Source: Nocardioides kribbensis (GTDB taxonomy: Bacteria; Actinomycetota; Actinomycetes; Propionibacteriales; Nocardioidaceae). Taken from it: 64,000 nt of DNA. A program made the position numbers and the translations under genes. A model generated the notes under the pieces. It made no database searches and had not been told where the DNA came from. It worked only from the letters and a program-made list of their open reading frames with translations. Shown here in pieces: positions 45,155-60,080 of this stretch. Location of the stretch: positions 62,001 to 126,000 of the forward strand of contig NZ_JADCLL010000008.1 in assembly GCF_015070375.1 (NCBI RefSeq), written 5' to 3'. The first letter of the stretch is position 1. Every line of letters begins with the position of its first letter.

Positions 45155-45340
45155 GTGCTCACCCACCTCTGCAGCGCCTGCGACAAGCGCCAGCTCATCT
45201 TCCCCTCCCAGATCACCGCGGTCGCCGACTCCGACCACGGCGTCCTGGCCACCTTCACCTGCTGGTGCGGCGCCGAGCAGACCGCCCCGCTCGACCTCGT
45301 GCCGAGCCGTGCGCGCGGCGAGAAGGTCCTCGCCGCCTGA
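45155..45340 (+). CDS. Small Cys-pair (zinc-ribbon-like) protein
   Basis: 61 residues: VLTHLCSACDKRQLIFPSQI with CxxC near residues 6-9, then FTCWCGAEQTAPLDLV with CxC near 33-35. The two pairs suggest one zinc site. GTG at 45155 has AGGAAGG 7 bases upstream; an in-frame ATG at 45134 would place the site inside the gene. Such small proteins are common in Nocardioides-type genomes; function unknown. Confidence 0.75.
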   Translation: MLTHLCSACDKRQLIFPSQITAVADSDHGVLATFTCWCGAEQTAPLDLVPSRARGEKVLAA

Positions 45341-45370
45341 GGCGATTTCGGCGCCTGCCGGGTCCGTCCG

Positions 45371-45376
45371 TATACT
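45371..45376 (+). promoter_or_regulatory. -10 box of tRNA-Thr
   Basis: TATACT, 45 bases before the mature tRNA. No convincing -35 box was identified. Confidence 0.5.
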
Positions 45377-45420
45377 TCGGCGGGTTGTCCGGCCTCGGTC
45401 CCTGACCGATCCGGCAGCGC

Positions 45421-45496
45421 GCCGCCTTAGCTCAGTCGGTAGAGCGTCTCACTCGTAATGAGAAGGTCGTCGGTTCGATTCCGACAGGCGGCTCCA
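45421..45496 (+). tRNA. tRNA-Thr (anticodon CGT)
   Basis: 76 bases with encoded CCA. Acceptor GCCGCCT pairs with AGGCGGC, D-loop AGCTCAGTCGGTAGAGC, anticodon stem-loop TCTCA-CTCGTAA-TGAGA with CGT, T-loop GGTTCGATTCC. Reads the ACG codon. Borders the accessory region; tRNA 3' ends are common integration sites. Confidence 0.96.
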
Positions 45497-45500
45497 CCTC

Positions 45501-45535
45501 AAGCCCCTGACCTGCAGTGATGCGGTCGGGGGCTT
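45501..45535 (+). terminator. Hairpin terminator after tRNA-Thr
   Basis: 12-bp stem (45501-45512 with 45524-45535, one G-U pair), 11-base loop, ending GGGGGCTT. Confidence 0.75.
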
Positions 45536-45563
45536 CGTCGTTCCCGGCCCGCGAGGGGTCAAG

Positions 45564-45585
45564 TCAACAGAAACTCAACAGAAAC
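45564..45585. repeat. Tandem 11-mer TCAACAGAAAC x2
   Basis: Two exact adjacent copies (45564-45574, 45575-45585), AT-rich in a GC-rich setting, 68 bases after the tRNA. Could be arm-type integrase sites or a remnant of an integrase gene end; not proven. Confidence 0.7.
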
Positions 45586-45655
45586 TGCGCGGAGTCCCTG
45601 CCCGCCACGTGTCCGTGCGGTCGACCGGCTGCAGGACCGTCGGATCTGTGGTGGT

Positions 45656-45675
45656 GTGTCCTGGGTAAAGGACAC
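45656..45675. promoter_or_regulatory. Operator-like palindrome
   Basis: GTGTCC-N8-GGACAC, just upstream of the DUF2510-DUF4041 gene; a third GGACAC half-site follows 9 bases later. Possible repressor site. Confidence 0.4.
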
Positions 45676-45692
45676 GGCGACAGGACACCCAG

Positions 45693-47105
45693 ATGATGGC
45701 GACCCCACCAGGTTGGTATCCCGACCCCCAGGACCAGAGCATCGTGCGGTGGTGGGACGGCCAGCAGTGGACCGGCCACACCCAGCCCCGTGTGACCTCA
45801 CCGCCGTCGCAGGGGCCGGCCGCTGAACCGGTCACGGCTGTACGGCGCGCGAAGCCCAAGTTGTTCGGCAAGGGCCAGGCCCTCGAGGAGGCCCAGGCCG
45901 AGAACGACCGCCTGCGCGCGGAGCTCGCGCGTCTGGGCGCCATGGAGATCGCCGACCTCCGAGCGGAGCGCGACCGGCTCCAGACGGAGGTCGAGACGAC
46001 TCGCGCCGGCATCGACGAGGCTGCGCGTGAGGCCGAGCAGCAGCGCGCCCGCGCCGCCGCCGAGCTCGCGGCGCTACGCGACCGCGTGGTGGAGACCAAT
46101 GAGACCGCGATCCTGCAGGAGGTCGGGGTCTACCGCTACCAGCACCCGCTCGACGACGCCGTGGCCTATCGCTCGGAGCTGTCGCGGCTTCAGGCTCAGA
46201 TCAAGGCGATGGCGCGCAAGGACGGGGGCGCGATCTCTGCGACGACGACGTGGCAGGTCAACGGCTCAGCCGCGCAGGGGCGCAAGCTCGTCTCCGACAT
46301 CAGCAAGCTCATGCTGCGGGCCTACAACGCCGAGGCCGACAACCTGGTGCGGGGGATGAAGCCCTACAAGCTGGAGTCGGCCAAGGCGCGTCTGGACAAG
46401 GTGGTGGCCACCATCGAGCGCCTGGGTGCCTCCATGAGCATCAAGATCTCCATCCCCTACCACCTGCTGCGCTGGCGTGAGCTCGAGCTGACCGCGGACT
46501 ACCTGGAGAAGGTGGCTGAGGAGAAGGAGTGCGACCGCGAGGAGCGAGAGCGGCTGCGCGAGGAGCGCAAGGTCGAGCAAGAGATCGAGCGCGAACGCCA
46601 ACGTCTGCGCAAGGAGGAGCAGCACTTCCGCCAAGCCATCGCGCAACTGCAGGCCAAGGGCGACACCGACGGCGTCGAGCGCCTGCGCGCCCAGCTCGCC
46701 GCTGTGGTGGGGGAGATCGAAGCCGTCGACTTCCGCGCACGGACCCTCACCGCTGGCCACGTCTACGTCATCTCCAACATCGGATCCTTCGGGGAAGGGG
46801 TGCTCAAGATCGGCATGACCCGCCGCTTGGAGCCGACGGACCGGGTGAAGGAGCTCGGCGACGCCTCGGTGCCCTTCATCTTCGACGTCCACGCCCTGTA
46901 CTTCGCCGAGAACGCCGTGAAGATCGAGCGCGAGATGCACCAGCGCTTCGCCGACCGCAGGGTCAACCGCGTCAACAACCGCAAGGAGTTCTTCCGCGTC
47001 ACCGCAGCCGAGGCCCGCGACGCACTTGCAGACCTCTCAGGGGAGCTCATGACGTTCGTCGAGGAACCCGAAGCGGTCGAGTATCGGCAAGGTCTCGTGA
47101 GCTAG
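45693..47105 (+). CDS. DUF2510-coiled coil-DUF4041-GIY-YIG (T5orf172/MUG113) protein
   Basis: 470 residues. N-terminal DUF2510 (GWYPDPQDQSIVRWWDGQQW), Pro-rich linker, coiled coil ~60-130 (EEAQAENDRLRAELARL), a DUF4041-like helical domain with YNAEADNLVRGMKPYKLESA near 210, a long charged coiled coil (EREREERKVEQEIERE type), and a C-terminal T5orf172/GIY-YIG domain starting HVYVISNIGSFGEGVLKIGM near 352, with TRRLEPTDRVKELGDASVPF and EREMHQRFADRRVNRVNNRK. The catalytic Arg (RR.EP.DRV) and Glu are present, so nuclease activity is plausible. DUF4041-T5orf172 proteins are phage- and island-associated; DUF2510 fusion is the actinobacterial variant. First gene after the tRNA. Confidence 0.82.
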   Translation: MMATPPGWYPDPQDQSIVRWWDGQQWTGHTQPRVTSPPSQGPAAEPVTAVRRAKPKLFGKGQALEEAQAENDRLRAELARLGAMEIADLRAERDRLQTEVETTRAGIDEAAREAEQQRARAAAELAALRDRVVETNETAILQEVGVYRYQHPLDDAVAYRSELSRLQAQIKAMARKDGGAISATTTWQVNGSAAQGRKLVSDISKLMLRAYNAEADNLVRGMKPYKLESAKARLDKVVATIERLGASMSIKISIPYHLLRWRELELTADYLEKVAEEKECDREERERLREERKVEQEIERERQRLRKEEQHFRQAIAQLQAKGDTDGVERLRAQLAAVVGEIEAVDFRARTLTAGHVYVISNIGSFGEGVLKIGMTRRLEPTDRVKELGDASVPFIFDVHALYFAENAVKIEREMHQRFADRRVNRVNNRKEFFRVTAAEARDALADLSGELMTFVEEPEAVEYRQGLVS

Positions 47106-47189
47106 CGCAGCGTGAAGTCTCGCTGGTTTGGTCCGGCGTAGGGCCGCAGAGCAGGGAGCGCTCCATGGCATGAGCGCGCGGCGGCCCGT

Positions 47190-47696
47190 CTAGGTAAGTG
47201 GAATCTTCCAGTCCGGACCGCCGGGCGGCACGGTGGAGGGTGCGCACCCTGCGGCGACTTGGCGGACCGCGAGGTCTGAGAAGACCAGATTGATGTTGTG
47301 GCCGTTCATTTTGATGGAGACCTCATAGAACGGAACCCCGAGTGCACTCTCCCAGTGGGACGCATCCGAGGAGGGGGACACGAACTGCATCCCTGGGTAA
47401 AGTTCTTGCGACTTGACGCCCCAGACATAGCCGTCGAGTTCCACGCCCGTTTCGTAGTCCATCAGCCGATCGTCGAGTGATCGGGCCCAGACCTCTGGCG
47501 GCACCGCTGAAGTCACGGTGGCTCTGACGCAATGCTTGAACGTGTACACCAGGCGCTCGGGGGCGATGTCTGATCGCGGATCAGCCGTAGCCCACATAAC
47601 GACGTCGTAGTCGCGCATGTAGTCGGCGAACCCGTGAAAGACGACAGCTTGATCGAAGACGTCGTCCATCGCCTGCTTCATCTCGTCCCTGTTCAC
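47190..47696 (-). CDS. Uncharacterised island protein
   Basis: 168 residues from GTG 47696 (NRDEMKQAMDDVFDQAVVFHG). No family recognised. Contains FADYMRDYDVVMWATADPR, VYTFKHCVRATVTSAVP, YETGVELDGYVWGVKSQELYPG and a C-terminal FYEVSIKMNGHNINLVFSDL. No signal or membrane segment. The frame stays open to 47867 but the extra N-terminal part is Arg/Ser-rich with no fold. Isolated on the minus strand between the GIY-YIG gene and the GHKL-nuclease cassette; may be a small immunity or antitoxin-like protein, which is a guess. Confidence 0.6.
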   Translation of the reverse strand: MNRDEMKQAMDDVFDQAVVFHGFADYMRDYDVVMWATADPRSDIAPERLVYTFKHCVRATVTSAVPPEVWARSLDDRLMDYETGVELDGYVWGVKSQELYPGMQFVSPSSDASHWESALGVPFYEVSIKMNGHNINLVFSDLAVRQVAAGCAPSTVPPGGPDWKIPLT

Positions 47697-47941
47697 GCCC
47701 CGAGCATGAAGCACACCGTGCAAGCCCGCAGGCTCATCGGCATCCCAACTGCCCTCGTCGTGCACCGGCAGGCGGCGGAATGGGCTAGCCCCGCTGACAC
47801 CGATTCGTGCAGCAGACCCCACTGCACGGGATGAGGTGCGGCGGCAACCCACCCGCCTGAGGCCCACAGAGCGACGAGATCTCTTGCCGTCGTTGGTGCG
47901 AAAGGGACGGTTTTGCCGTCGTCCTCCGACAGAATCAGGCC

Positions 47942-50077
47942 GTGAGCACGATGACCGTCACCGTCACCCCCGAGCACCTGCGGCAACTGCGTCGCACTCC
48001 GGTCACTGGCCTTCTTGAGCTCGTCAAGAACTCCCTTGATGCTGACGCCGCGCACGTGAGCGTCACCTACGAGTTGGAACCGATGGAGCGTGTGGGCGCC
48101 GTAGTCATTACCGACGACGGCAATGGCATGACGTATGAGGACGTGGGTCGCTACTTCCAGCCGTTGGGACGGTCGTGGAAGCAGAGGCTGGCATCGACGA
48201 CCCCGTCGGGTCGGCCGTTCTTCGGCAGAAGGGGCCGCGGGCGGTTCACCGCGTTCGCGATCGGTGAGCAGGTGCGCTGGGAGAGTTGGGCTGTGCCGGC
48301 TGCTGGGTCGACGACGTCGCCCGCTGAGGCGGACGCGGCGCCGCAGTGTGAGCGCGTCATTGTCGACTGGCACGTCGATAGCAACACGTTCGCCGTCGCC
48401 CGCGAGCCGGCACCGGAGGGCATGCCGAGCCACAATCTGGCCGATGCGGTCTTCGGCGTCGACGAGCGGTCGGAGTCTCGACCGCGGACGGGCACCCTGG
48501 TGACGGTGAGCGGCATCGGGGTCAAGGGGCAGCAGGTGCGTTCGTCGAAGGCCCGCAGCGCCGTCACTGAAGCACTCGCGGAGTACCTGTGGCGCCATTC
48601 CCAAGTGTCGGTGTCGGTGGACGGTGAGGCCGTCGACCCTGCGCAGGTGCAGGTCGATACGACCCCGCTCAAAGTCGACCTCAGCGGTGTCGTCGAACTC
48701 CTCCGCACCTCGGAGCCGATGGGGTCGCCCATGCTGGTTGGCGGGGAGACCGGCAAGGGCCCAGGCGAGGAGGTCAGTGGACGATCGAGCGTCTCGACAG
48801 AAGCAGCCCTCGTGGTCACCGAGTGGGAGCACAACGTGCTGGCGTCTGTGGGCCTGGCCCGCCTTGACGGGACCTTCGTAGCACTGGTGCCCGTTCGTGT
48901 GCCAGCCGCTGGTATCGCGTACAGCGCGAAGGTCGTGTGGGACGGAGCCGATGCCGTCGGTGGGCTATTGGCTACGGGCGACATGTCGCCGGTGGTCGTG
49001 GAGTTCAACCGGGTCGTCCGTACGCGACTTCGGGACTTCCTCGCCGTTCGCGCCGACGAGGCGCGGGCGCTGCTACTCGCGACGTGGCGCGATGAGGGCA
49101 GCTACCCGTACACAGCGCCTGCTCGTGACGATGCGGAGGAGGCGGAACGCGACCTCTTCGACATCGTCGCCGTCACCGCCGCTCCGGCGGTCAAGGGATC
49201 CGATGCTGCGGGACGCACTTTCGCGTTTCAGCTTCTACGGCAGGCCCTCCGCACGGACGGCGACGAGCTGCAGCGCGTTCTCGAGCAGGTCCTCGGCCTC
49301 AGTGGCGAAGACCTCGCGGGCCTCGATGAGCTCCTGACGAAGTCGTCGCTGCCGGCGATGATCGCCATCGGGAAGACGGCGACGGACCGGATCGGGTTTT
49401 GTGCCTGGCTGAAAACGGTCCTCAACGACGACGCGTGGGTCCGTTCACTGACCGAACGTGGCGGACTGCAGGACATTATCGAACGCAACGCGTGGATCTT
49501 CGGTGACGACTGGCAGACCGTCGTCGCGGACCGTGGGCTCGCAGCAGGGCTGCACCGTCTGCGCGAGGAGGGCCTTCCCGGTGTTGGCCCCGCCGAGACG
49601 GTCCGAGATGCCAATGGCCGCATCGTGCGGGTCGACCTGCTCCTCTCACGGGCGCGTGAGGCGTTCGGTCGCCGTCAGCACTTGGTCGTCGAGCTGAAGC
49701 GCCCGAGCCAACTGCTGCGTAAGCAGGAACTCGACCAGCTGGAGAACTACGTGACGACGGTCGTTGACAACTCTCAGTTCAACGACGGGGCGATTGACTG
49801 GACGTTCCTTCTCGTCGGCCGCGAGACCGACGGGTATGTCAACCGCAGACGCACGTCTGACGACCGGCCAGCAGGGGTAGTCGACCGGAAACGCCTGGAG
49901 AACGGTGCGACATACCAGGTGGTGGTGCGCCCCTGGTCGGAGATCCTCCGCGAGGCAGAGAGCCGGCTGCGATTCCTGTCGGTTCACCTTCCGGACTTCC
50001 CCGACAAGGACGAGGTCGCGCGTCTGTCACAGGCGCACACCGACCTGGGCATGGGGCCCGCTGCTGAGGACGTCTGA
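47942..50077 (+). CDS. GHKL ATPase fused to Shedu-like (DUF4263) nuclease domain
   Basis: 711 residues. N-terminal GHKL ATPase: LLELVKNSLDADAAHVSV near residue 24 with the Asn/Asp N-box, VVITDDGNGMTYEDV near 56 (DxGxG box), FFGRRGRGRFTAFAIG near 90 (the G2-type loop). A ~300-residue middle part has no recognised fold. The C-terminus has a PD-(D/E)XK core matching the Shedu SduA/DUF4263 pattern: IIERNAWIFGDDWQTVV near 512, VDLLLSR near 563, HLVVELKRPSQ near 579 (ExK), then ELDQLENYVTTVV. An ATP-switched nuclease is inferred. GTG start. Followed by a second nuclease-fold gene after 146 bases. Confidence 0.8.
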   Translation: MSTMTVTVTPEHLRQLRRTPVTGLLELVKNSLDADAAHVSVTYELEPMERVGAVVITDDGNGMTYEDVGRYFQPLGRSWKQRLASTTPSGRPFFGRRGRGRFTAFAIGEQVRWESWAVPAAGSTTSPAEADAAPQCERVIVDWHVDSNTFAVAREPAPEGMPSHNLADAVFGVDERSESRPRTGTLVTVSGIGVKGQQVRSSKARSAVTEALAEYLWRHSQVSVSVDGEAVDPAQVQVDTTPLKVDLSGVVELLRTSEPMGSPMLVGGETGKGPGEEVSGRSSVSTEAALVVTEWEHNVLASVGLARLDGTFVALVPVRVPAAGIAYSAKVVWDGADAVGGLLATGDMSPVVVEFNRVVRTRLRDFLAVRADEARALLLATWRDEGSYPYTAPARDDAEEAERDLFDIVAVTAAPAVKGSDAAGRTFAFQLLRQALRTDGDELQRVLEQVLGLSGEDLAGLDELLTKSSLPAMIAIGKTATDRIGFCAWLKTVLNDDAWVRSLTERGGLQDIIERNAWIFGDDWQTVVADRGLAAGLHRLREEGLPGVGPAETVRDANGRIVRVDLLLSRAREAFGRRQHLVVELKRPSQLLRKQELDQLENYVTTVVDNSQFNDGAIDWTFLLVGRETDGYVNRRRTSDDRPAGVVDRKRLENGATYQVVVRPWSEILREAESRLRFLSVHLPDFPDKDEVARLSQAHTDLGMGPAAEDV

Positions 50078-50223
50078 CGCACGTCGAGTGCGGTCTTCGA
50101 GCTGGACACGCAGAGCCCGAAGCGGCGAGGTGGGAGCGTCGCAGCGGCGTCTGACTGAGGTTCGTGCGAGGCGGGACCCGCGTTCCGTGTCCGGGGCGGA
50201 GCAGGTTGTGACACGGTCTACGG

Positions 50224-50934
50224 GTGTCGGTCGAACTTGTTGAGCCATGGCGAGGGCGTCACCTAACACTTCGCGCCCGCTGGGACGTCATCGAGCGAGC
50301 CGACCGGTCTCGTGACCATACGGACGTCGCAGCGTGGACTCAGCGCCATCAGCGGATGAGAGCCGTCCAAGAGCAGCTTGTAGACCGCGGTGCCTGGCGA
50401 GGAGGCCCACGCACTCTCCTGGCTGCCATCGGCGTCCAGTATCTGGAGCTGCCGCTGACTGCCGGTCTGGCGTGGCTGCTGCGTCCGGACGGGCATCACG
50501 GTCTGGGCTCATCAATGCTCGTCGACCTGCTCGACCACCTTTGCCCCGAGGCGCCACGGCGTGTTGATGCCAGCCGGGTACGGGTCGTGAGGGAGGAGAC
50601 AAGGGCCGATGAGCGCGGTAAAACGCGAGCGGACCTGGTCATCTACGGCACCGGCTGGACCCTCGTCGTCGAGGCCAAGACGTTCGCAGTCGAGCAGCCC
50701 GAACAACTCGATCGGCTCTACCGGCTTTGGACCGATGACCCGGACCCCCAGTTCGTGTTCCTCACCCGCGGCGAACGAGACCAGAAGACGGCCGAGGTCA
50801 GCGCCGGCCGCTGGACGCCGTTGACCTGGGAACAGGTCGCCGACATCGCATCGTCCGCTGCCACGTCCCGCGCCGGCGTAGCTCCCGGAGTCTTCGATTA
50901 CCTCGCAACCTTGAAGGGCTTCCACCGTGTCTGA
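50224..50934 (+). CDS. PD-(D/E)XK nuclease-superfamily protein
   Basis: 236 residues. A helical N-terminal part, then the nuclease core: RADLVIYGTGWTLVVEAKT with Asp near residue 136 and ExK near 149, followed by EQPEQLDRLYRLWTDDP and QFVFLTRGERDQKTAE. No DNA-binding domain seen. GTG start without a strong ribosome site. Its last 8 bases overlap the next gene, and it lies behind the GHKL-Shedu gene on the same strand, suggesting one operon. Confidence 0.75.
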   Translation: MSVELVEPWRGRHLTLRARWDVIERADRSRDHTDVAAWTQRHQRMRAVQEQLVDRGAWRGGPRTLLAAIGVQYLELPLTAGLAWLLRPDGHHGLGSSMLVDLLDHLCPEAPRRVDASRVRVVREETRADERGKTRADLVIYGTGWTLVVEAKTFAVEQPEQLDRLYRLWTDDPDPQFVFLTRGERDQKTAEVSAGRWTPLTWEQVADIASSAATSRAGVAPGVFDYLATLKGFHRV

Positions 50935-51547
50935 ACCTTCCGCCCCCGACAGCGGCGTTAGCCCCGTCAGCCCTGACGGGCTCGAGCGTTCTGGTGCTTC
51001 GAGTCGTGATGAGGCGGACGCGAAGGCTTGGTTCTACCTCGACCACCGAGAGGACATTGAGGCGTGGGCGTCGCTGCGCAGCGAGGGTCGGGCTCTCCTT
51101 GAGAAGTCCCTCGTCGGCATCGCGACCGACCTTGACGAGTTCGCCGAGGAGGTAAGTGCCGCAAGGGAGACGACCGAACTGGCCGACGGGTCCTGGCCGA
51201 CCGTGGGCCTGTACCGGACTCGGTGGGCCACTGGCGGGATCGCAGACGCCGACGTCGTCGTCCAGTGGGAGCGGTCCCGTCTCCTCGTGCGAGGAGCCGG
51301 CACCGAGTGGCCGTACGTCGGAGTACGAATCCGAACCGACCTGGACGACACGGCCCGGCGCAGCCAGATCTGCGAGGCGGTGCGACCGTTCAGGTCGCAG
51401 TTCACCGGCAAGCCGTCACGGAACTTCCCCTGCTGGGGCCACGTCCGTGCGAGCGGTCCACTCGACCCGGAGGCGTACGTCGCTGACGTGCTCGCGGCCT
51501 ACCGGCGCCTCTGGGCGGCGGTTGCGCCAGCACTCGACGCACTGTGA
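50927..51547 (+). CDS. Uncharacterised partner protein of the nuclease cassette
   Basis: 206 residues. Not recognised. A polar N-terminus of ~28 residues precedes DEADAKAWFYLDHREDIEAWASL, LLEKSLVGIATDLDEFAEEV, VGLYRTRWATGGIADADVVV, WPYVGVRIRTDLDDT and the C-terminal YVADVLAAYRRLWAAV. Alpha/beta composition, no cysteine clusters or catalytic motif. An 8-base overlap with the PD-(D/E)XK gene means coupled translation, so a complex partner or modulator is likely. Confidence 0.7.
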   Translation: MSEPSAPDSGVSPVSPDGLERSGASSRDEADAKAWFYLDHREDIEAWASLRSEGRALLEKSLVGIATDLDEFAEEVSAARETTELADGSWPTVGLYRTRWATGGIADADVVVQWERSRLLVRGAGTEWPYVGVRIRTDLDDTARRSQICEAVRPFRSQFTGKPSRNFPCWGHVRASGPLDPEAYVADVLAAYRRLWAAVAPALDAL

Positions 51548-51731
51548 GGGCCGACCCTCAGGGGACCGCGGGCCCGTCAGAGTCGACCCCGGGCGCGGGC
51601 TACCGCGGCTACCGCGAACTACGTGAACGATGAGATCCCTACTCCACCCCCGCCGGGGGCCGGGAGACTGATGAACGGATCTGTCACATCTGAGATCGCT
51701 TGACGAGTTGTCTGGCTGGAAGGATGTTGCT

Positions 51732-52022
51732 GTGCCCTAGTCCTACGCCCGCGAGGTCCGTGAGGACGTCGTCCGGGTCGCCCGTAACCGTGGGTCTGGG
51801 GTGACGCTGGCTCAGAGCGCAACCGGCTTCGGAGTCCATGAGATGACGATCTCGAAGTGGCTCCGTCAAGCTGATCTCGAGGACGGCGTGAAGCCCGGTG
51901 TCACTACCGATGAGTCGCGTTAGCTCCGCGAGTTGAAATCCCGTAACTGGTTGCTGAAGCAAAGGGACGAGGTCCTACGGCGGGCTGCGGCTTAACTGTC
52001 GCAGGCCCAACTACAGCGAAAA
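51732..52022 (+). pseudogene. IS3-type transposase OrfA, broken
   Basis: Frame from GTG 51732 reads like a typical IS3 OrfA (YAREVREDVVRVARNRG, GVHEMTISKWLRQADLEDG, LRELKSRNWLLKQ, LRRAAA) but is interrupted by in-frame stops at 51738 (TAG), 51921 (TAG) and 51993 (TAA), replacing ordinary codons. OrfB is absent. Inactive relic. Confidence 0.85.
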
Positions 52023-52054
52023 AGGCTCAAGTCGCTCGTGAGAGCTCGCCGCGG

Positions 52055-52078
52055 CCGGCACCCCGCTTCGGGTGCCGG
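52055..52078. terminator. Perfect hairpin after the IS relic
   Basis: CCGGCACCC and GGGTGCCGG arms with loop CGCTTC; terminator-like. Confidence 0.5.
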
Positions 52079-52176
52079 TCGCGGTGGGGTCTAGCGATCG
52101 GAGACCTGTGACTGCCCGCTGACGCGGCACACCCGCCCGGATCCGAGTCCGACGTTGCGTCTTCTTCTGCGGATCC

Positions 52177-54042
52177 GTGCGCCTTGACCAGGACGGCGAG
52201 GCGTCAAAGGAGAAGTCGCACCCATCATTTACGTTTCGGAGCATGTTGCGCATGTTCACCAGGGGAGAGGACCGCGAGCCGACACCAGAGGAGGTCGACC
52301 AACACCCCGCTCTTGTGGATGCGTGGCAGCAATCTGAATATTTGCGCTGGCCGCACGGGATCGGCGTCGGGGTCCTGTGCATCCTAATACTTGTCCCTGC
52401 GCCCATATGGGCGATGCCGGTCTTAGAGTTCAGTGAACAACACTGGGCGTGGATTGTGTTGATTCCGTTGGGTTTTGCGTTGTGGTGGGTAGGGCTTGAG
52501 TTCTTCGAGGCAGAATTTTTTTGGACCTGTTGCGCGGTCGCAATGACACTCGGAACTGCCCTGCAGGTGGACGGCATTGTTGACGTCGTCGGAATCCTGC
52601 GAACAGAAATTGGAGGATTTCGACTATGGTTCTTTTTGGCCATTATTTTTGCGAGTGGATTGATGGCGTGGGGTGTTACTCATATTCACGAAAGTGAGAT
52701 CGTTGTCGTATTGATCGGGATCGCTGGCGTGACGTGGGTGGCGCTCGTGCTTTACATCGCTTGGAATGCCGCTATTGCGCGCGTCGAATTGACTGACTTT
52801 CGGATGTTGCTCAGCGGATTACGACAGCACTGGGCTCCAGTAGGTCTCGTCTTCGCGGCCGCTGTCACGTTCATTCGTCTTCGGTCGGGATTGAATGCTA
52901 TGAATCTGGGTCGTTACGATGACGGATGGGATTATCTGCCGCCGCCTCAACCTCTGAGGGGGGAAGAGGTTGGTGGGCCTGATCAAGGACGATGGGCGCG
53001 AAAAATGGTAGAGGTTCTACGGCGCTCCGGCATTGGCATCTTCGACGGAACTTTAATCTTACTTACTGCCTCGTTGTTCGCTCTAACCGTACTTTATTAC
53101 GTGCCGGATCAACTGGTTGCTAACAGCAACCTCACCGCGGCCGATGCCGCGACCGCTCGAACAAACGAACGACGGACGGTTCTGGCCCTGCTTGCGTCCA
53201 TTGGCGCTGCAATCACCTTGGTTTATACCCACCTTCGTCATCAACTCGATCGAGAGTCGGCCTCCAACGCGCGATTTGCCGACGGCGTCGCACAACTCGC
53301 TACAGAGACATTGAGCACTCGGCTTGGCGGGCTCTATGCGCTTGCCCAGATCGCGCGCGAGTCCCCGCGAGACGCGAATAACGTTGTACAGATCCTCGCT
53401 GCTTATGCGCAGGAATCGACCCGAGTGCGAGCTGAGGCCCCTGAGGAGACGCCTCTTACGCAAGTCACGACAGCCGCGCTAGCCGTGTTGAGCGAGACGC
53501 CATCGACGGCGATGGGGCCAAATCTTCGTGGGCTGATTCTCAGTCAGTTAGTAATGGACGAGACCCTCCGCTTTCGGCCGTGGACCGACCTGCAGGACTC
53601 AGATTTTCGGGGCAGCACGCTAACCCGCGGTGTCTTGCGTCGAGTGTCCCTTGTTCGGGCCAAACTCCAAGAGAGCCATTGGTTGGACTCCGACCTATCC
53701 GACTCTGATATGCGTTTGGCGGATTGCTCGCACGCGACATTTCGCGACAGCGTCTTGCGTAATACCTCGTTTAGCGACAGTAATTGCGAGTGGTCGCGAT
53801 TCCGAAACGTCACCTTCGATGGTGCGACATTTGACGGTTCGAGCCTGAGGGGGGCTCAATTTGTTGACTGCAGTTTCCGCGGTGCGTCCTTTTTCCGATG
53901 CGACCTCCGAGGTGCTGATCTGTCATCGTCCGACCTGTCTGAGGTAAACTTCATCGACGTAGGTTTCGACGCAGGCACCCGATGGCCGCGTGGCTTTGAT
54001 CCGTCGAGCATTGGCCGAACGAGAAGGCGACCTAGGCAATAG
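52177..54042 (+). CDS. Membrane protein with C-terminal pentapeptide repeats
   Basis: 621 residues, GTG start (ATG 52243 is an alternative). Several membrane segments: GIGVGVLCILILVPAPIWAM, WIVLIPLGFALWWVG, LWFFLAIIFASGLMAWG, VVVLIGIAGVTWVALVLY, WAPVGLVFAAAVTF, and two near 280-340. Then the conserved pentapeptide-family linker FADGVAQLATETLSTRLGGLYALAQIARESP near 370 (given here in motif form), and pentapeptide repeats (A/C(D/N)LXX) over about 460-600, e.g. FRGSTLTRGVL, FRGASFFRCDLRGADLSSSD. A 60-base sample (52621-52680) is 45% GC against ~70% outside, strong evidence of transfer. Some relatives act in abortive infection or drug protection; function here unknown. Confidence 0.82.
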   Translation: MRLDQDGEASKEKSHPSFTFRSMLRMFTRGEDREPTPEEVDQHPALVDAWQQSEYLRWPHGIGVGVLCILILVPAPIWAMPVLEFSEQHWAWIVLIPLGFALWWVGLEFFEAEFFWTCCAVAMTLGTALQVDGIVDVVGILRTEIGGFRLWFFLAIIFASGLMAWGVTHIHESEIVVVLIGIAGVTWVALVLYIAWNAAIARVELTDFRMLLSGLRQHWAPVGLVFAAAVTFIRLRSGLNAMNLGRYDDGWDYLPPPQPLRGEEVGGPDQGRWARKMVEVLRRSGIGIFDGTLILLTASLFALTVLYYVPDQLVANSNLTAADAATARTNERRTVLALLASIGAAITLVYTHLRHQLDRESASNARFADGVAQLATETLSTRLGGLYALAQIARESPRDANNVVQILAAYAQESTRVRAEAPEETPLTQVTTAALAVLSETPSTAMGPNLRGLILSQLVMDETLRFRPWTDLQDSDFRGSTLTRGVLRRVSLVRAKLQESHWLDSDLSDSDMRLADCSHATFRDSVLRNTSFSDSNCEWSRFRNVTFDGATFDGSSLRGAQFVDCSFRGASFFRCDLRGADLSSSDLSEVNFIDVGFDAGTRWPRGFDPSSIGRTRRRPRQ

Positions 54043-54751
54043 CGAAGTGATGTACAAGAAATCCCGAACTCCTGCTTAGGCGTCCTGCCGACCTTCAGTT
54101 AACGGGATGAACTGAGTGCCTGAACCGTGTTCGAGCAGACGTCCAGTTTTCGGTGGGCCAACTAGGGGCGTAGGCGCCGGCGGTGCGCGACTCTTTGCCT
54201 ATGAGTGGAGGCGACTTCGCCCGAGTATTGACAGCGTGTTCGGTCACGATCGCGTTGACGTCGCTCGCGTGGGCGGTGACGTCCTGGTGTTGGGCCGGAT
54301 CGTCGCTGCGTTTCCACTGCGTCATGTATCGAGACGCTCTGGTGATCCGTGTCTTCGACGCGGGGCGGGTCGCGGTTACAGTGGAGTAATTTGAGCTTGG
54401 GCACAGTGATCGGTCGCCGCTGACCCAACTTGCGAAGGATGTCGCGTTCGACCTTGAGATCGGCGACTTCCTTGCGCAGCCGCTTCAACTCGAGACGCTC
54501 ATGCCCGCTGGGCCGCTCGGCAGGGCGTCGAGCGTCTTCTGCTCGCGTTCCCTGCGGACCCAGGCACCGAGGATCTTGTAGTTGATGCCGAGGTCGCGAG
54601 CGACCTCGGCCACCGGCTCTCTCGGAGGCTCTCATGTGTCCTGCCGATCGTGGCAACGACCGCGCGACGTGTTCCCGGTCGTCTTGCTTGATGGAGTCGG
54701 CGGATCAGCGAACTGTCAAGGAGTCTTGGGAACACAGGTGGAACACGCGGC
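54043..54751. other. Gap with a second dead transposase fragment
   Basis: 709 bases. Low-complexity spacer at the left; 54400-54660 carries a frameshifted OrfA on the minus strand; nothing else recognised. Confidence 0.65.
54400..54660 (-). pseudogene. Transposase OrfA fragment, frameshifted
   Basis: Minus strand reads EVARDLGINYKILGAWVRRE, the HTH region of an IS3-type OrfA, then after a frameshift near 54500-54530 continues as HERLELKRLRKEVADLKVE and RDILRKLGQ, the coiled-coil zipper of the same protein. No OrfB. Different subfamily from the relic at 51.7 kb. Confidence 0.75.
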
Positions 54752-54787
54752 GTGCTAGCAGGGTCGTCGATCGCGGACAATGAAGGC

Positions 54788-57100
54788 GTGACGACGACCT
54801 GGGCGGACGAACCACTGATCTCATCGTGTGCGGACACTCTTGACCGCAAGCAGTACGCCGGACAGGCCGCAGAACTCATCGCCTCGACCCACTCGCCCGA
54901 CTCGAGCGTCGTCTTCGGCCTGGCTGGCGCATGGGGTAGTGGCAAGACTTCCGTGGTCAACATGCTGGTTGAGCACTTGAAGAAGCACCACAAGCAATGG
55001 GTGGTCGCCCGGTTCACGCCGTGGGCGACCAGCGACATCACCGGCCTACTGTCCGAGTTCCACGCGGCCGTTTCCGAAGCACTTCCGAAGAAGCGCGGCA
55101 AAGCGTTCACCAGAGCACTCGCGACCACCGCAGGGCTGGCTGCGCCGGTAGCGAACGTCATCCCCGTCGCTGGTGCGGCGGCGGCCGACGTAGTCAAAGC
55201 CGGTGCTGAACGCCTAACGCGGGACCCGTCATGGCAAAAGGCCTTCAACGACGCCGCGAGCGAACTGCGCAAGCTCCGCATCCCGGTCCTGGTCGTAGTC
55301 GACGACATCGACCGCCTGCACGGCGACGAACTCGCGGCACTCCTCAAGGTCGTCCGGTTGCTGGGCCGGTTCGACGGGATGTCCTACCTGCTGGCCTACG
55401 ACGAAGACACCCTCCTGCGGACGGTCGTCGGCGGCCACTTCGCCGGACCAGGGGCAGGGGTGGCCGGACCGGTCGCCGGATCAGTGACCTGGGGCGGCTC
55501 TCGGGCAGAAAGCGACGCAGCCGCCACATTGTTCCTCGAAAAGATCGTCCAGTACCCCCTAACAGTGCCGCCACTTCTGAAGCACCAAGCAGTCGTACGC
55601 CTCAACGCCGGTCTGGCGCCGATCCTCACTGCGCGTGGCGGAACGAGACGGTCGAGCGACCCCGGACGTTTGCCTGCGATGGTTGAGTGCTTCACCGACC
55701 TGTTGCGCACACCCCGAGCGATCGATAGGTACGTCGCGCAAGTCCGCCATCACCTGCCGCTGCTCGACGTCGGCGAGATCGACGACGACGACGTCCAACT
55801 GCTTCTGCTACTCCGTGTCGCCGTACCGCAGCTCTACCACCAACTACCCCGATACAAAGACCGGCTCGTCTCCGGCGGCACCGGGCAACTAGAATTTGAA
55901 TCACCTGACCTCGCGATGCAGAAGTTCAACCCGGCCCCTTTGCTGGAACGCGTGCCCGCGGACCAACAGCAATCGGCGCGACTCGTCCTCGGATCACTGT
56001 TCCCGAAGGTCACGTTCACCGGCCACTACGGCACCTACGCCTCCGAGACGGGCGTCGGTGTTCGTGTGGAGGATTACTTCGACCGGTACTTCGCCATGGG
56101 GATCGTGACCCATGATGTGCGGGACTCCGACGCGCGCGAGGCGGTGCAGGCTGCTGCGGCCGGCGACGCGAGTCCGCTGGTGCGGTTGCTGACGGGGCAG
56201 GCCCCAGATGCGACTCCGTCGCCGGGCGGTCCAGCGATAACAACTACGCCCCCAAGCGGGCCAATTGACCCGAGCCGGCAGATGCTCGCCCTGAGAAAGT
56301 GCATGCACCGCGCGAATCAACCGTCCACCGACCCCGGTCAGGTCCTCGACAAAGCCAGGATACGGCTCGCTTCATCGATCGTCACGACGATAGCGCTGGT
56401 CCCCGAGGAACACGGATCCATGTTCAGCGCACACTCGCAACTGCTGCGTTGGCTGGCCTCGACAATCGCAGGCCTAGACGACAATCAACCGGCCGTCGAC
56501 ATCATCGCGCTGGCCGAGCCTTTGGACGTCAGCACTCGCATGCGCCTGTGGCGCGATACCGAGCAGGCCATGCCTGAAGTCAGGCGCAATAACACCGCCC
56601 CATCATGGGCCGGCGCCGTCGAGACTGACATCCTCGACCGCGCCGTCGCCGCAATTATCGACAACCTCACCGACGGCGACTACGCCCCGGAGGCCCTCGG
56701 CATCGGATTCGTCCTCCACTCTGCCCTGTCCAGGAACCGCGTGGGTGAGCTCCGTCAGAAGATCCAGGCGGTCATCGCGACGGGCGCAGTCACGTTGGAG
56801 ACCCTCGCGTCACGACTGGTCGGGATCCACGGCTCCGTCGGGGTCACGACCACCTGGTACCTCGCGACCGACGAATTCGACCAGAGCATCTACGACCAGC
56901 TTGCACCGCCAGGAGACGACCCCTGGTACCACCAAGAAGTGGTCGACGTCGACGCGTCCGACCTGACCTGGTCAAATCGTCGCGCCTTCGTGCGAGGAAG
57001 AGTCACGCCACCGCCGAACGCCACCACCGCGCCTGAGAGCGAACCTGATGACGGCCAGCGCGTCGAGCCGTCAGGACCGGCCCAAGGCGATGAGGGCTGA
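54788..57100 (+). CDS. KAP-family P-loop NTPase
   Basis: 770 residues from GTG 54788; an in-frame GTG at 54752 would add 12 residues. KAP motifs: Walker A FGLAGAWGSGKTSVVNML near residue 44, WVVARFTPWATSDIT near 76 (the KAP PW motif), a hydrophobic insert (TTAGLAAPVANVIPVAGAAA) near 118, typical of the membrane-associated KAP helices, Walker B PVLVVVDDIDRLHGDEL near 162, and SYLLAYDEDTLLR near 200. A ~400-residue C-terminal region has no recognised domain. KAP NTPases occur in defence islands and with toxin or nuclease partners; no obvious partner is adjacent. Confidence 0.85.
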   Translation: MTTTWADEPLISSCADTLDRKQYAGQAAELIASTHSPDSSVVFGLAGAWGSGKTSVVNMLVEHLKKHHKQWVVARFTPWATSDITGLLSEFHAAVSEALPKKRGKAFTRALATTAGLAAPVANVIPVAGAAAADVVKAGAERLTRDPSWQKAFNDAASELRKLRIPVLVVVDDIDRLHGDELAALLKVVRLLGRFDGMSYLLAYDEDTLLRTVVGGHFAGPGAGVAGPVAGSVTWGGSRAESDAAATLFLEKIVQYPLTVPPLLKHQAVVRLNAGLAPILTARGGTRRSSDPGRLPAMVECFTDLLRTPRAIDRYVAQVRHHLPLLDVGEIDDDDVQLLLLLRVAVPQLYHQLPRYKDRLVSGGTGQLEFESPDLAMQKFNPAPLLERVPADQQQSARLVLGSLFPKVTFTGHYGTYASETGVGVRVEDYFDRYFAMGIVTHDVRDSDAREAVQAAAAGDASPLVRLLTGQAPDATPSPGGPAITTTPPSGPIDPSRQMLALRKCMHRANQPSTDPGQVLDKARIRLASSIVTTIALVPEEHGSMFSAHSQLLRWLASTIAGLDDNQPAVDIIALAEPLDVSTRMRLWRDTEQAMPEVRRNNTAPSWAGAVETDILDRAVAAIIDNLTDGDYAPEALGIGFVLHSALSRNRVGELRQKIQAVIATGAVTLETLASRLVGIHGSVGVTTTWYLATDEFDQSIYDQLAPPGDDPWYHQEVVDVDASDLTWSNRRAFVRGRVTPPPNATTAPESEPDDGQRVEPSGPAQGDEG

Positions 57101-57685
57101 CGAACCCGACTTCCGATGGTGGGTGCGGCGACCCTCATCCGAAGAATTCGTCGAGTGTCGGGCGAAGGTCGGGGGCGTCTTGGCTGGAGCACCGCTGCCC
57201 GCGGGGTCGCCGGTGGTGGCCCGGGACCGGGCGGGGTGCGCGTCAGCGCGACGACTCCGGCTCGTATGTAAGGAGGCCTCGCTTCGCTCGGCTGGTCCGG
57301 ATCGGGTCTGCTCGTCGTCGGAATCGTGGGGTCTGCGTCGTGACCGGATCGTCCCTGCTCGTGTGCGTCATGGTGCTTGTCGCAGTGGTCTTGCAGTTGG
57401 GGGGTCCGACTTCAACGTTGGCTGTGACTGAACCACTGCATGACCTGCGACGTAGGAGCAGGCCCCCCACCTCCGAGTGGCTCCTACAAGGTGACAAAGC
57501 AGCCGTGTGTCCTGGGGGGAGTGCGCGTCAGGGGCTATGTCATGCCGATTTCCCAAGGGACATAGGCGTGCGGGACAAGGCGACATTGGCGCCGAATTTC
57601 GGCGGGGTCGTCGATTTTCGCCCCGCAGATCCACCCCCGGAATCTGCGAAGTCGGCCCTCCCTGACGCAGCGGCACAGCCCCTGC
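57101..57685. other. Gap without a recognised gene
   Basis: 585 bases. One plus-strand frame at 57340 begins with a helix-like stretch (SLLVCVMVLVAVVLQL) but continues as low-complexity sequence overlapping the next gene, so it is not called. No repeats or RNA recognised. Confidence 0.5.
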
Positions 57686-59755
57686 ATGACCCAGCCCTTC
57701 GGCAACGCCATCCACGACCCCCACATGATCCGACCTCGCGCAGCTCGCACGGTGGCGGCTCGACAACGGGCCGAGACCCTCGCCGACATCGAGGCTGACC
57801 CCGCCCACCTGCACAACGTCGTCCGGAACGTGTGCGAGCGCCGGGAGTTCCGGTATCTGACGAGCCTCACCCTCGTCGACGTGCTCCGTGCGTCAGGGGT
57901 GAGCCCGAGCCGAAGTCGCAGGCTCGTCCGCAAGCTCTGCCGCATTCTCGGAGAGCCGGAAGCAGCGGTGGAGACCCTCACCCTGGGCTGGCTGCGGGAC
58001 GGTCGTTCACGAGGCCGCCGGCTCCAGATCTGGAACGAGCTCCACGCGACCCTCGACGACATCCCCACCACCTTTCCGTTCTCGCATCACCCCCATCACG
58101 AACCGCCAACGAGCCCGCTCTCGCACGAGCCCCTAGCGGAAGGAAGGTGGATGGCCAACGCAGTCGGGCCAGGAACTGCAGCGGGCATGAGTCGTTCCCA
58201 GGCCCTCGGCCTGTTGAGGGAGAGCGAGGTCTGCGACCTCGCGATAGCCGGGGCTCAGTGGAGCGAGATCGAGTGGTCGCCCGCCGCTTCTCGCCGCGAC
58301 CCGTACTACCGATTCGGCCTGCTCCGCGGCTCCTCGACGTCCGTGCGACCGCACCCCCCTCTGCCGAGCCGGGACCGTCGCCGCCCCACAGCGGAGGGTG
58401 AGCTCGGCACGCCGCAGGACCGCCGCATGCTGCTTGGTTCGCTCGAGCTCATGCAGCGCGTGCTCGGTGTCGTGCACTCCTTCCGCGCTGTCACGGAGGA
58501 GCAGTTGCTGGCGCTGGTCGGGCCCGGCACCGAACCCCGCGCCCTGCGTGAGGTTTTGCAGGCCGCCTGGAGCGCAGGTGTGCTTGCCCTCAGCGTCGAT
58601 GACGGCATCTATCTCGGACCCCGCATCATCGCTCCGGGGCAGAACGGAGCGGAGTTCATCGCCTCGTTCTGCACGCCGGCCGCCGAGCTGGCCATCCTCG
58701 GCAAGACCCCCTGGACGGGCGACGCCCGGCACCACCACCACAGCATCCTGGCCGCCGAGCTCCTGCTCCGCATCGGAGAGCTCTGCGACGCCGTCGCGCT
58801 CATCGGCGAGCAGCACTGCGCCCTGGGCAACCTGACTCGGAGGTCTCCGTCGCCTCTCGACGCACGGTGGGCCGAGAAGAGGGCCGACGGCGCCGTCGTG
58901 CGAAGCGACGGACTCCCCATCGCCATCGAGATGACCCGTAACGTCAACCGCAACGTCATCGACAAAGTCGACGCGTGGGTCGACTACCTCGAGAGAGTCC
59001 AGCCCTCGGCGGGCGGAGCCACCGTCCTCTTCGTGGCAGCACCTGATCCGTACCACGGGCATCGACAGCGCTCGCACGACATGACCAAGCGTCTGCAGAG
59101 GATCATCGCCGGAAAGGCGCGTGCGCTGTCGCCGAGCAATGCCGCACGCCTGTGCGTCGTCTCCTGGGCCGACTGGTTCCCGACAGCGGACCAATGCCGG
59201 TGGGAAGCCTTCGAAGGACTTCGGGCCCTCTGCCCTGATGGCGAGGGGAGGTGGAACGTCGTCGAGCTCCTCGAGCAGACCTACTCCTGGCCGTCCGATA
59301 ACGCAGCGGCCTACGACATCGTCGCCAACGCCAGCATGCTCGGCCAGACCCCTCCCGCCCTCGCTCGGCGCGGCTTTGAGAGAACCAGCGTCCCGCGCGA
59401 CACCGCCCCAGGGAGTGACCCGTTGAACCGTCCCTGGCGCAGCGTCCCCGTCGTGCTGGCCGGCCGCACCGACCGACCCACTCTCGGGGCGGGAGCCGTG
59501 GTACAGCGCAACGTCACCGTCCCTGGAGCCGCCGGCATCGCGTGCGGTGCGGAGCTCTGCGGCGGCCCCGCCCTACCACGCAAGCCCGCGCCCGCGGACA
59601 ACAGACTCGGCCCTCCCGATGCTCCGAACGTACAGGCGCGAATCACCCCGGTCGCGCGGTCGGTGGGGGCTCCCCCGAGAACCGGAGCACCGGCGACCTC
59701 GCCGGTTCCTGTGGTCGCGCGCCGACGACCGGCTGCTGCCGGCCGGGAGAGCTAG
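57686..59755 (+). CDS. Replication-relaxation-like mobile-element protein
   Basis: 689 residues. N-terminal basic helical part (TVAARQRAETLADIEADP ... NVCERREFRYLTSLTLVDVL), a winged-helix region near 255-310 (LGVVHSFRAVTEEQLLALVG ... LREVLQAAWSAGVLALSVD), then an alpha/beta core with WAEKRADGAVVRSDGLPIAIE near 390 and KVDAWVDYLERVQPSAGGATVLFV, the pattern of actinobacterial replication-relaxation proteins, nuclease-fold-like DNA factors of integrative elements. The last ~100 residues are Pro/Ala/Arg-rich. Assignment is by pattern only. Last gene of the accessory region. Confidence 0.6.
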   Translation: MTQPFGNAIHDPHMIRPRAARTVAARQRAETLADIEADPAHLHNVVRNVCERREFRYLTSLTLVDVLRASGVSPSRSRRLVRKLCRILGEPEAAVETLTLGWLRDGRSRGRRLQIWNELHATLDDIPTTFPFSHHPHHEPPTSPLSHEPLAEGRWMANAVGPGTAAGMSRSQALGLLRESEVCDLAIAGAQWSEIEWSPAASRRDPYYRFGLLRGSSTSVRPHPPLPSRDRRRPTAEGELGTPQDRRMLLGSLELMQRVLGVVHSFRAVTEEQLLALVGPGTEPRALREVLQAAWSAGVLALSVDDGIYLGPRIIAPGQNGAEFIASFCTPAAELAILGKTPWTGDARHHHHSILAAELLLRIGELCDAVALIGEQHCALGNLTRRSPSPLDARWAEKRADGAVVRSDGLPIAIEMTRNVNRNVIDKVDAWVDYLERVQPSAGGATVLFVAAPDPYHGHRQRSHDMTKRLQRIIAGKARALSPSNAARLCVVSWADWFPTADQCRWEAFEGLRALCPDGEGRWNVVELLEQTYSWPSDNAAAYDIVANASMLGQTPPALARRGFERTSVPRDTAPGSDPLNRPWRSVPVVLAGRTDRPTLGAGAVVQRNVTVPGAAGIACGAELCGGPALPRKPAPADNRLGPPDAPNVQARITPVARSVGAPPRTGAPATSPVPVVARRRPAAAGRES

Positions 59756-60080
59756 GTCGACATCGGTGACCCAGCCGACTGGTTCGACCGCACAAGCTGT
59801 GGACGGTCTGTAAACGTCCAGCCAGCCGCTGCTTCGGGGGAGGCCGCTCGCACGTCCTGATTCTGCGCGGTCAGTGGATGTGCCATATGGACTATTCCGG
59901 AGCGGGTCGGCCTAGTCCGTCGTGACTACGTCCTTTGCTTCCTGATGGCCTGTTGGGTGAAGCCAGCCCGGGCGTTCCCAGATCGTTCACTCAAGTCGCC
60001 GTTCCTCGTTCCCGTGGCCTCCCGATGCTTACGTCGCTCCGCCACCCCGGGGCCCTGACCAGTGAGGAAACGGCTCGACG
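59756..60080. other. Right edge of island / pst promoter region
   Basis: 325 bases. Left part looks foreign and empty; 59974-59995 holds PHO-box-like repeats in front of pstC. A search by eye for a copy of the tRNA-Thr 3' end found only a GGTTCGA match near 59781. Confidence 0.55.
59974..59995 (+). promoter_or_regulatory. PHO-box-like direct repeats
   Basis: GTTCCCA at 59974 and GTTCACT at 59985: two units with 11-bp period, matching the PhoP box of actinobacteria (GTTCACC units). Further GTTCC motifs follow at 60001 and 60008. About 90 bases before pstC. Confidence 0.5.

What the first reader, a model, noticed from the sequence alone, without database searches (positions are those of the whole stretch)
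47942..51547. Candidate defence cassette: GHKL ATPase-Shedu fusion + PD-(D/E)XK protein + unknown protein
Seen: three same-strand genes; the first combines a GHKL ATP-binding site (NSLDAD, DDGNGM) with a C-terminal ExK nuclease core (VVELKRPSQ, ELDQLENY) of Shedu/DUF4263 type; the second has its own D-ExK core; the third overlaps the second by 8 bases and has no known fold. Known: Shedu nucleases and GHKL ATPases each occur in anti-phage systems. Inference: an ATP-gated two-nuclease system. It lies in a tRNA-linked, patchy-GC region with a GIY-YIG fusion and a KAP NTPase.
Basis: partly seen in the sequence, partly recalled or inferred. Interest (0 to 1): 0.82.

Follow-up and report, generated by a model that had tools for sequence, protein, structure and literature searches.

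The report
Shedu ATPase-nuclease beside restriction-linked nuclease pair
The three genes are not one machine but two: a stand-alone bacterial anti-virus protein of a kind already tested in another bacterium, and next to it an unnamed pair of genes that in other bacteria usually sits beside restriction systems and so is probably a helper nuclease against viruses.

Summary
In detail: gene 1 (47942-50077) is a GHKL ATPase fused to an E-D-ExK nuclease, gene 2 (50224-50934) carries a PDDEXK_4 core, and gene 3 (50927-51547) overlaps gene 2 by 8 bases and matches no family searched. The three-gene system does not hold. Gene 1 looks like the stand-alone GHKL-Shedu proteins (paraMORC3 / VcSduA, shown to stop phage by Adams et al. 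2025): none of 80 relatives has gene 2 or 3 beside it (64 of 80 with at least 3 kb on both sides). Genes 2 and 3 are a unit of their own: 10 of 112 genomes of another family of the same class carry both side by side, with no gene 1 relative in about 20 kb around them. In 9 of these 10 a modification-based restriction system lies within about 10 kb: type I R-M (6, one a remnant), Hma, Ssp or Dnd/Pbe; 0 of 19 control stretches have one. My searches found no description of this pair. Best reading: two neighbouring defence units, the second a portable accessory nuclease of restriction systems, here behind a Shedu gene. How the pair senses its target is open; a fold hint for gene 3 (McrB reader domain) is weak.

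The parts
47942..50077 (+). Gene 1: GHKL ATPase (about residues 1-230), middle domain, C-terminal PD-(D/E)XK nuclease (E505, D565, E584-x-K586, Q599); GHKL-Shedu / paraMORC3-like, 711 aa
   Evidence: Pfam, alignments of 43 and 39 proteins, AlphaFold2 model and fold comparison
50224..50934 (+). Gene 2: PDDEXK_4-type nuclease, 236 aa, with D137, E150-x-K152 and Q158
   Evidence: Pfam PF14281 E 7.3e-10, alignment of 10, hhalign with PDDEXK_4 proteins E 3.3e-7
50927..51547 (+). Gene 3: partner of gene 2, 206 aa, acidic, no family match; overlaps gene 2 by 8 bases
   Evidence: Alignment of 10, coupling in relatives, AlphaFold2 model, pI
50078..50223 (+). 146-base gap between genes 1 and 2; no terminator-like or promoter-like match and no unusual RNA fold

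Best explanation
Two separate defence units lie side by side in a low-GC stretch behind tRNA-Thr. Unit A is gene 1, a stand-alone GHKL-Shedu protein: two subunits probably close on ATP through their GHKL domains, the middle domain clamps DNA, and the C-terminal E-D-ExK nuclease cuts phage DNA. Unit B is genes 2-3, a translationally coupled pair: gene 2 is a PD-(D/E)XK nuclease and gene 3 its dedicated partner. Unit B is an accessory of restriction systems; in other genomes of the class it rides with type I R-M, Hma, Ssp or Dnd/Pbe loci. It most likely acts as a second line against phages those systems cannot stop, with gene 3 either sensing the trigger (modified or unmarked phage DNA, or inhibition of the main system) or holding the nuclease in check. 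Shown here: the genes, the conserved catalytic residues, the separateness of A and B, the pairing of genes 2 and 3, and the restriction linkage in relatives. Inferred: every mechanistic step of both units, and that unit B works here without a modification system beside it.
For: Gene 1 alone: none of 80 relatives has genes 2-3 nearby. Same build as VcSduA, whose ATPase and nuclease residues are both needed against phage (PMC12137116). Genes 2-3 as a unit: side by side in 10 of 112 genomes of one family, overlapping by 8 bases in 4, by 4 bases in 4, and by 11 bases or with a 1-base gap in 1 of the 9 intact pairs. Restriction linkage: 9 of 10 pairs against 0 of 19 control stretches, identified by Pfam and PADLOC. 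Catalytic residues invariant in both nucleases.
Against: In the window the pair has no modification system beside it: six Hsd-type queries find nothing in the 64 kb, and one of the ten relatives, G775, also lacks one by 17 queries. The 17 queries of the linkage test come from the test loci themselves, and four of the nine linked loci share one HsdR type, so there are about five independent contexts. All ten pairs come from one family. Gene 1's C-terminal domain itself does not match Pfam SduA_C and found no Shedu chain in the PDB by sequence profile. Genes 1 and 2 are only 146 bases apart with no terminator found, so co-transcription is possible.
Confidence: 0.6

Rival explanations
1. One three-gene system: the GHKL-Shedu protein is the ATP-driven sensor that licenses the gene 2 nuclease through gene 3.
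For: Same strand, 146 bases apart, no terminator-like match between.
Against: No co-occurrence in 80 gene 1 loci, 3 same-genus loci or ten gene 2-3 loci; G775 lacks gene 1 altogether.
Confidence: 0.08
2. Type IV-like restriction pair: gene 3 reads modified phage DNA and brings in the gene 2 nuclease, covering phages whose modified DNA escapes the neighbouring R-M system.
For: The first ten entries in the VIA-align list for gene 3 are all the McrB DNA-binding domain (Z 7.0-6.5, 113-120 aligned, rmsd 3.6-3.9); linkage to modification-based systems.
Against: Those ten rows are one protein, and Z 7 is what the tool reports for models without a clear match; Foldseek gave nothing below E 0.1 in the PDB. 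All ten gene 3 proteins are acidic, pI 4.7-5.8. No motor protein in the pair.
Confidence: 0.25
3. Guard of restriction: the pair stays silent while the main system works and is released when a phage disables it, as PrrC is by T4 in the EcoprrI type I locus.
For: The pair accompanies systems with chemically different marks (methylation and phosphorothioation), so the common factor may be restriction failure rather than one mark; PrrC precedent (PMC3874165, passage).
Against: Linkage is not universal (window and G775); no interaction with Hsd, Ssp, Hma or Dnd proteins was tested.
Confidence: 0.22
4. Split two-domain nuclease: gene 3 is the detached C-terminal half of a PDDEXK_4 / PDC-S26 protein.
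For: Gene 2 matches only the N-terminal part of roughly 350-415-position PDC-S26 profiles; the two genes are coupled.
Against: hhalign of gene 3 with three full-length PDDEXK_4 proteins found nothing, while the same thin profile found gene 2.
Confidence: 0.15
5. Toxin-antitoxin-like pair: gene 2 is a self-acting nuclease and acidic gene 3 its inhibitor, kept near restriction loci as an addiction module.
For: Tight coupling; acidic partner.
Against: No toxicity data; the order nuclease then partner and linkage to restriction do not single this out.
Confidence: 0.15

Closest known systems
VcSduA, GHKL-Shedu (type I-D) of Vibrio cholerae (Adams et al. 2025, PMC12137116)
   Same: Single protein with N-terminal GHKL ATPase, middle domain and C-terminal PD-(D/E)xK nuclease; the glutamate and lysine tested there (E27, K557) answer by motif position to E26 and K586 here
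paraMORC3 (Iyer et al. 2008, PMC2292703)
   Same: GHKL ATPase plus C-terminal restriction-fold domain with E-D-ExK, patchy spread, some standing alone
   Different: The paraMORC3 sequences of that paper were not compared directly
PDDEXK_4 (PF14281) / PADLOC PDC-S26
   Same: Gene 2 carries the profile's nuclease core
   Different: 236 aa against roughly 350-415; a separate coupled partner (gene 3) follows
PrrC of the EcoprrI type I R-M locus
   Same: Accessory nuclease encoded with a type I R-M operon
   Different: PrrC is an anticodon nuclease inside the operon; no sequence relation tested; genes 2-3 also go with Hma, Ssp and Dnd/Pbe
Nucleases linked to Dnd loci (Rakesh et al. 2024, PMC10853773)
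   Same: Varied nucleases downstream of or at the edge of phosphorothioation loci, sometimes on the other strand
   Different: The passages seen do not describe this two-gene pair
McrBC (type IV)
   Same: Weak fold resemblance of gene 3 to the McrB DNA-binding domain; PD-(D/E)XK partner (that McrC has one is recalled)
   Different: No GTPase motor; the resemblance is at noise level

Membership tests
GHKL-Shedu (VcSduA-like) / paraMORC3, gene 1 | N-terminal GHKL ATPase with intact motifs | tested here: met
   HATPase_c_3 E 4.4e-16; N30, D58, G60, G62, G98, G100 invariant in 43; TRAP1 Z 19.6 over 174 residues
GHKL-Shedu (VcSduA-like) / paraMORC3, gene 1 | Middle (S5-like) domain after the ATPase | tested here: inconclusive
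   MORC2 and Hsp90 chains align to about residue 375 but with rmsd about 7-8; pTM of the model 0.60
GHKL-Shedu (VcSduA-like) / paraMORC3, gene 1 | C-terminal restriction-fold domain with E-D-ExK | tested here: met
   E505, D565, E584, K586 invariant in 43 and 39 proteins; core order of helix and strands in the model; the domain was not folded or searched alone
GHKL-Shedu (VcSduA-like) / paraMORC3, gene 1 | Homology of that domain to DUF4263 / SduA_C | tested here: inconclusive
   Window protein no match; 4 of 39 relatives match SduA_C, best 3.7e-4; 31 of 39 match HSDR_N_2, best 7.9e-5; no PDB chain by profile
GHKL-Shedu (VcSduA-like) / paraMORC3, gene 1 | Works as a single gene | tested here: inconclusive
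   Genomic test only: no constant gene 2 or 3 partner in 80 loci; other partners were not searched for
GHKL-Shedu (VcSduA-like) / paraMORC3, gene 1 | Protects against phage | not testable with these tools
   -
PDDEXK_4 (PF14281), gene 2 | Profile match over the cut-off with D-ExK residues | tested here: met
   39.5 bits against 22.3; D137, E150, K152, Q158 invariant in 10
PDC-S26 (PADLOC), gene 2 | Full-length match to the 350-415-position profiles | tested here: not met
   Best matches cover profile positions 34-186 of 400 and the like
Type I R-M-linked accessory, genes 2-3 | Encoded next to a type I R-M operon | tested here: not met
   Met in 6 of 10 relatives, one of them a remnant, but not in the window: no Hsd relative in 64 kb
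McrBC (type IV) | McrB-type DNA-reading domain | tested here: inconclusive
   Z 7.0-6.5, at the tool's noise level
McrBC (type IV) | AAA+ GTPase motor in the system | tested here: not met
   Gene 2 and gene 3 have no NTPase match in Pfam
McrBC (type IV) | Cuts modified DNA only | not testable with these tools
   -

The most novel reading that the evidence does not exclude
Genes 2-3 are an undescribed portable guard: one nuclease-partner pair that plugs into chemically different self-marking systems (type I and Hma methylation, Ssp and Dnd phosphorothioation, and here a GHKL-Shedu) and fires when any of them is defeated, so that gene 3 senses something common to restriction failure rather than a particular DNA mark.
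Probability: 0.22. Interest if true: 0.78.

Novelty: new variant of a known kind. Interest (0 to 1): 0.5.

Why it matters
Gene 1 extends a recently tested Shedu type to this genus. Genes 2-3 are a compact conserved pair that goes with several kinds of self-marking restriction system. If it is a second-line nuclease, it would show how bacteria patch the blind spots of restriction with one interchangeable module, and the linkage gives direct experiments.

Tried and rejected
Three-gene cassette: rejected as a conserved unit. Island borders: among repeats of 16 bases or more in 45300-62500 no direct repeat includes the tRNA gene, so no att sites were shown; empty sites in relatives were not looked at. 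RNA structure, terminator or promoter between genes 1 and 2: none. Gene 3 against PDDEXK_4 C-termini: nothing. Gene 2-3 relatives on viral contigs: none. On plasmids: none for gene 3; for gene 2 two Proteus records at 28% over 69% of the query, not followed up beyond fetching one, which had no annotated features. Solved structures by sequence for genes 2 and 3: chance-level rows only.

Rows dropped: G839 (gene 3 match at E 5.9e-4, no gene 2); 13 of the 14 genomes (weak gene 3 matches, E 6.9e-5 to 0.0097, 391 genomes searched, some with stops inside), taken as chance after a second look at the ORFs; G903 (part of gene 2 at E 3e-7, not followed up). The frameshifted pair of G793 was left out of alignments A4 and A5 but kept in the neighbourhood count. 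A7 holds 43 sequences: the window, the relative in G013 and 41 of the 66 full-length ORFs. One search kept the best 80 of 103 relatives. Neighbour proteins for the Pfam and PADLOC scans were hand-picked, not all genes of the stretches; that G775 has no modification system rests on 17 queries and one scanned neighbour, a UvrD-like helicase. Shedu chains do not appear in the fold lists shown for gene 1, which test mainly residues 6-375.

Literature: the searches showed nothing on the gene 2-3 pair (the family name was a guess of mine for the unnamed family). The library lacks most subscription papers, among them the Shedu classification paper. Papers seen as passages: PMC2292703, PMC12839542, PMC10853773, PMC12904381, PMC9519451, PMC3874165; as outline, passages and one section: PMC12137116; the rest as listings only.
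Full report
What is there. Gene 1 matches HATPase_c_3 at E 4.4e-16 over residues 24-117, gene 2 matches PDDEXK_4 at E 7.3e-10, and gene 3 matches nothing up to E 1 in Pfam, PADLOC or NCBIfam. The surroundings are as described: a tRNA-Thr at 45421-45496, GC of 0.57-0.69 per kb from 45 to 60 kb, a T5orf172/DUF4041 protein that PADLOC calls PD-Lambda-1 (E 1.1e-110) and a KAP NTPase that matches PifA (E 4.9e-44). The host is probably a Nocardioides: two same-genus genomes have contigs of exactly the lengths of named records, one of them N. albidus (inference).

Gene 1. A search of 145 related genomes found full-length relatives in three same-genus genomes. An alignment of these with the window protein found 103 relatives in one-per-species genomes, of which the best 80 were kept, from many phyla of bacteria and some archaea; 66 of the matching ORFs are full-length. 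In 43 aligned proteins the ATPase residues N30, D58, G60, G62, G98 and G100 and the nuclease residues E505, D565, E584, K586 and Q599 are invariant, as are the latter in 39 C-terminal halves. The AlphaFold2 model (pLDDT 84.3, pTM 0.60) matches TRAP1/Hsp90 (Z 19.6, 174 aligned, rmsd 2.4) and MORC2 (Z about 17, 260-291 aligned, rmsd about 7-8 over two domains) in its first half. Its second half shows helix 533-542, strands 563-572 and 577-585, helix 594-609 and strand 618-626, the order expected of a PD-(D/E)XK core, with D565 on the first of these strands and E584-x-K586 at the end of the second. Against a simple Shedu label: no PDB chain was found with the C-terminal profile, and the window protein does not match Pfam's SduA_C, which 4 of 39 relatives match weakly.

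This build is in print. Iyer et al. 2008 (PMC2292703, passages) called it paraMORC3: GHKL and S5 domains with a C-terminal restriction-fold domain carrying E-D-ExK, some standing alone. Adams et al. 2025 (PMC12137116, passages and one section) showed that VcSduA, a single protein of this build, protects against phage, that changing the ATPase residue or the nuclease residue abolishes protection, and placed it in Shedu type I-D. A 2026 review (PMC12904381, passages) describes end binding and nicking at a fixed distance from DNA ends by an E. coli Shedu with another N-terminal clamp. The most likely mechanism of gene 1 is ATP-dependent clamping of DNA by a GHKL dimer that positions the C-terminal nuclease on phage DNA; this is inference from relatives.

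Are the three genes one system? No relative of gene 2 or 3 was found in the loci of the 80 gene 1 relatives (102 loci scanned, hits only in loci of the window's own genome; 64 of the 80 have at least 3 kb on both sides), nor in 16-18 kb around the three same-genus relatives. In the same 145 genomes gene 2 and gene 3 each occur only in the window's own genome, and a draw of 391 genomes of the order added only chance-level gene 3 matches. A draw of 394 genomes of the class gave one further gene 3, in G775; another draw of 296, not checked for overlap with the first and searched with the profile, gave none beyond the window's own. In the family of G775, 11 of 112 genomes match gene 3. One, G839, has only a weak match and no gene 2 and was dropped. 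The other ten all have a gene 2 relative directly upstream. In nine of them both genes are intact and overlap by 8 bases (4), by 4 bases (4), or by 11 bases or with a 1-base gap depending on the start chosen (1). In the tenth, G793, the matches to both genes are split between frames. No gene 1 relative lies in these stretches, and G775 has none at all. So genes 2 and 3 are a conserved unit and gene 1 is not part of it.

What genes 2-3 go with. Around the ten pairs (L152-L161, about 20 kb each) Pfam, PADLOC and comparison with proteins so identified give: HsdM-HsdS-HsdR on the same strand directly upstream in G834 and G857, and with one extra gene of 273-277 aa between in G886 and G865; HsdS-HsdR upstream with two signalling-type genes between in G793; a 164-aa remnant carrying HsdM and HsdR sequence and overlapping gene 2 by 4 bases in G831; HmaA-HmaB-HmaC divergent from the pair in G817; SspA-B-C-D-E divergent in G823; a PbeC-like gene close upstream, with DndB, C and D on the other strand further up, in G822; and nothing of the kind found in G775. 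In G857 hsdR overlaps gene 2 by 4 bases. Scanned in one way with 17 query proteins, 9 of 10 test stretches and 0 of 19 control stretches from the same contigs hold a match at E up to 1e-10. Caveats: the queries come from the test loci, and four of the nine share one HsdR type, so there are about five independent contexts (two HsdR types, Hma, Ssp, Dnd/Pbe). The window's genome has two type I loci on other contigs; the HsdR of one matches the linked type with 1637 bits, but six Hsd-type queries find nothing in the window.

What gene 3 may be. Its model is fair (pLDDT 81.4, pTM 0.72, ten sequences): helices 24-63 and 65-75, a group of strands, and further helices. Foldseek found nothing below E 0.1 in the PDB or below 0.05 among viral models. 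The second look by VIA-align lists ten entries of the McrB DNA-binding domain first, Z 7.0-6.5, with the next, unrelated rows at 6.3 and below; the tool says models without a clear match often reach such values. All ten gene 3 proteins are acidic, pI 4.7-5.8. A reader of modified DNA, a sensor of restriction failure and an inhibitor of gene 2 all remain open. A tie to the C-terminal half of PDDEXK_4 proteins was not found, though the comparison was thin.

Verdict. Gene 1 looks like a new member of a known, tested kind. Genes 2-3 are a two-gene, restriction-linked nuclease unit for which I found no description in the searches named under Tried and rejected. Accessory nucleases of restriction systems are a known kind (PrrC, PMC3874165, passage; Dnd-linked nucleases, PMC10853773, passages), so I rate the whole a new variant of a known kind. 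Its spread over chemically different self-marking systems is the interesting part.

Noticed in passing
window 45693-47105 (+): 470-aa protein with DUF2510, DUF4041 and a T5orf172/MUG113 (GIY-YIG-type) domain, 197 bases behind tRNA-Thr; matches PADLOC PD-Lambda-1 over residues 66-467 (E 1.1e-110), a candidate third defence gene of the stretch.
   Followed up: partly
window 54752-57100 (+): 782-aa KAP-family NTPase matching PADLOC PifA at E 4.9e-44.
   Followed up: no
window 52177-54042 (+) and 57686-59755 (+): A 621-aa protein with a pentapeptide-repeat C-terminus, and a 689-aa protein without any match in Pfam, PADLOC or NCBIfam up to E 1.
   Followed up: no
window 47190-47867 (-): YxiG-like protein (PF24712, E 6.1e-66) between the PD-Lambda-1-like gene and gene 1, on the other strand.
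   Followed up: no
Pasteurella phages Pmp3 and Pmp14 (OR544134.1, OR544131.1): Gene 1 relatives about 26% identical over 97% of the query lie in two phage records, 45 plasmid records hold relatives, and PHROG 6203 matches gene 1 at E 3.2e-53: GHKL-Shedu genes travel on phages and plasmids.
   Followed up: no
L152 11073-11906 (-) and L154 10774-11595 (-): A 273-277-aa protein without a match in Pfam (E up to 0.001) or PADLOC lies between hsdR and gene 2 in two genomes, overlapping gene 2 by 4 bases; possibly a further accessory.
   Followed up: partly
L157 8503-8997 (+): A 164-aa ORF carrying HsdM N-terminal and HsdR sequence: it looks like what a deletion inside a type I operon left behind, with the gene 2-3 pair kept.
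   Followed up: no
L153 11103-13913 (+): A second methylase-like gene (HsdM_b match, E 3.6e-31) about 1 kb downstream of the gene 2-3 pair in G834.
   Followed up: no
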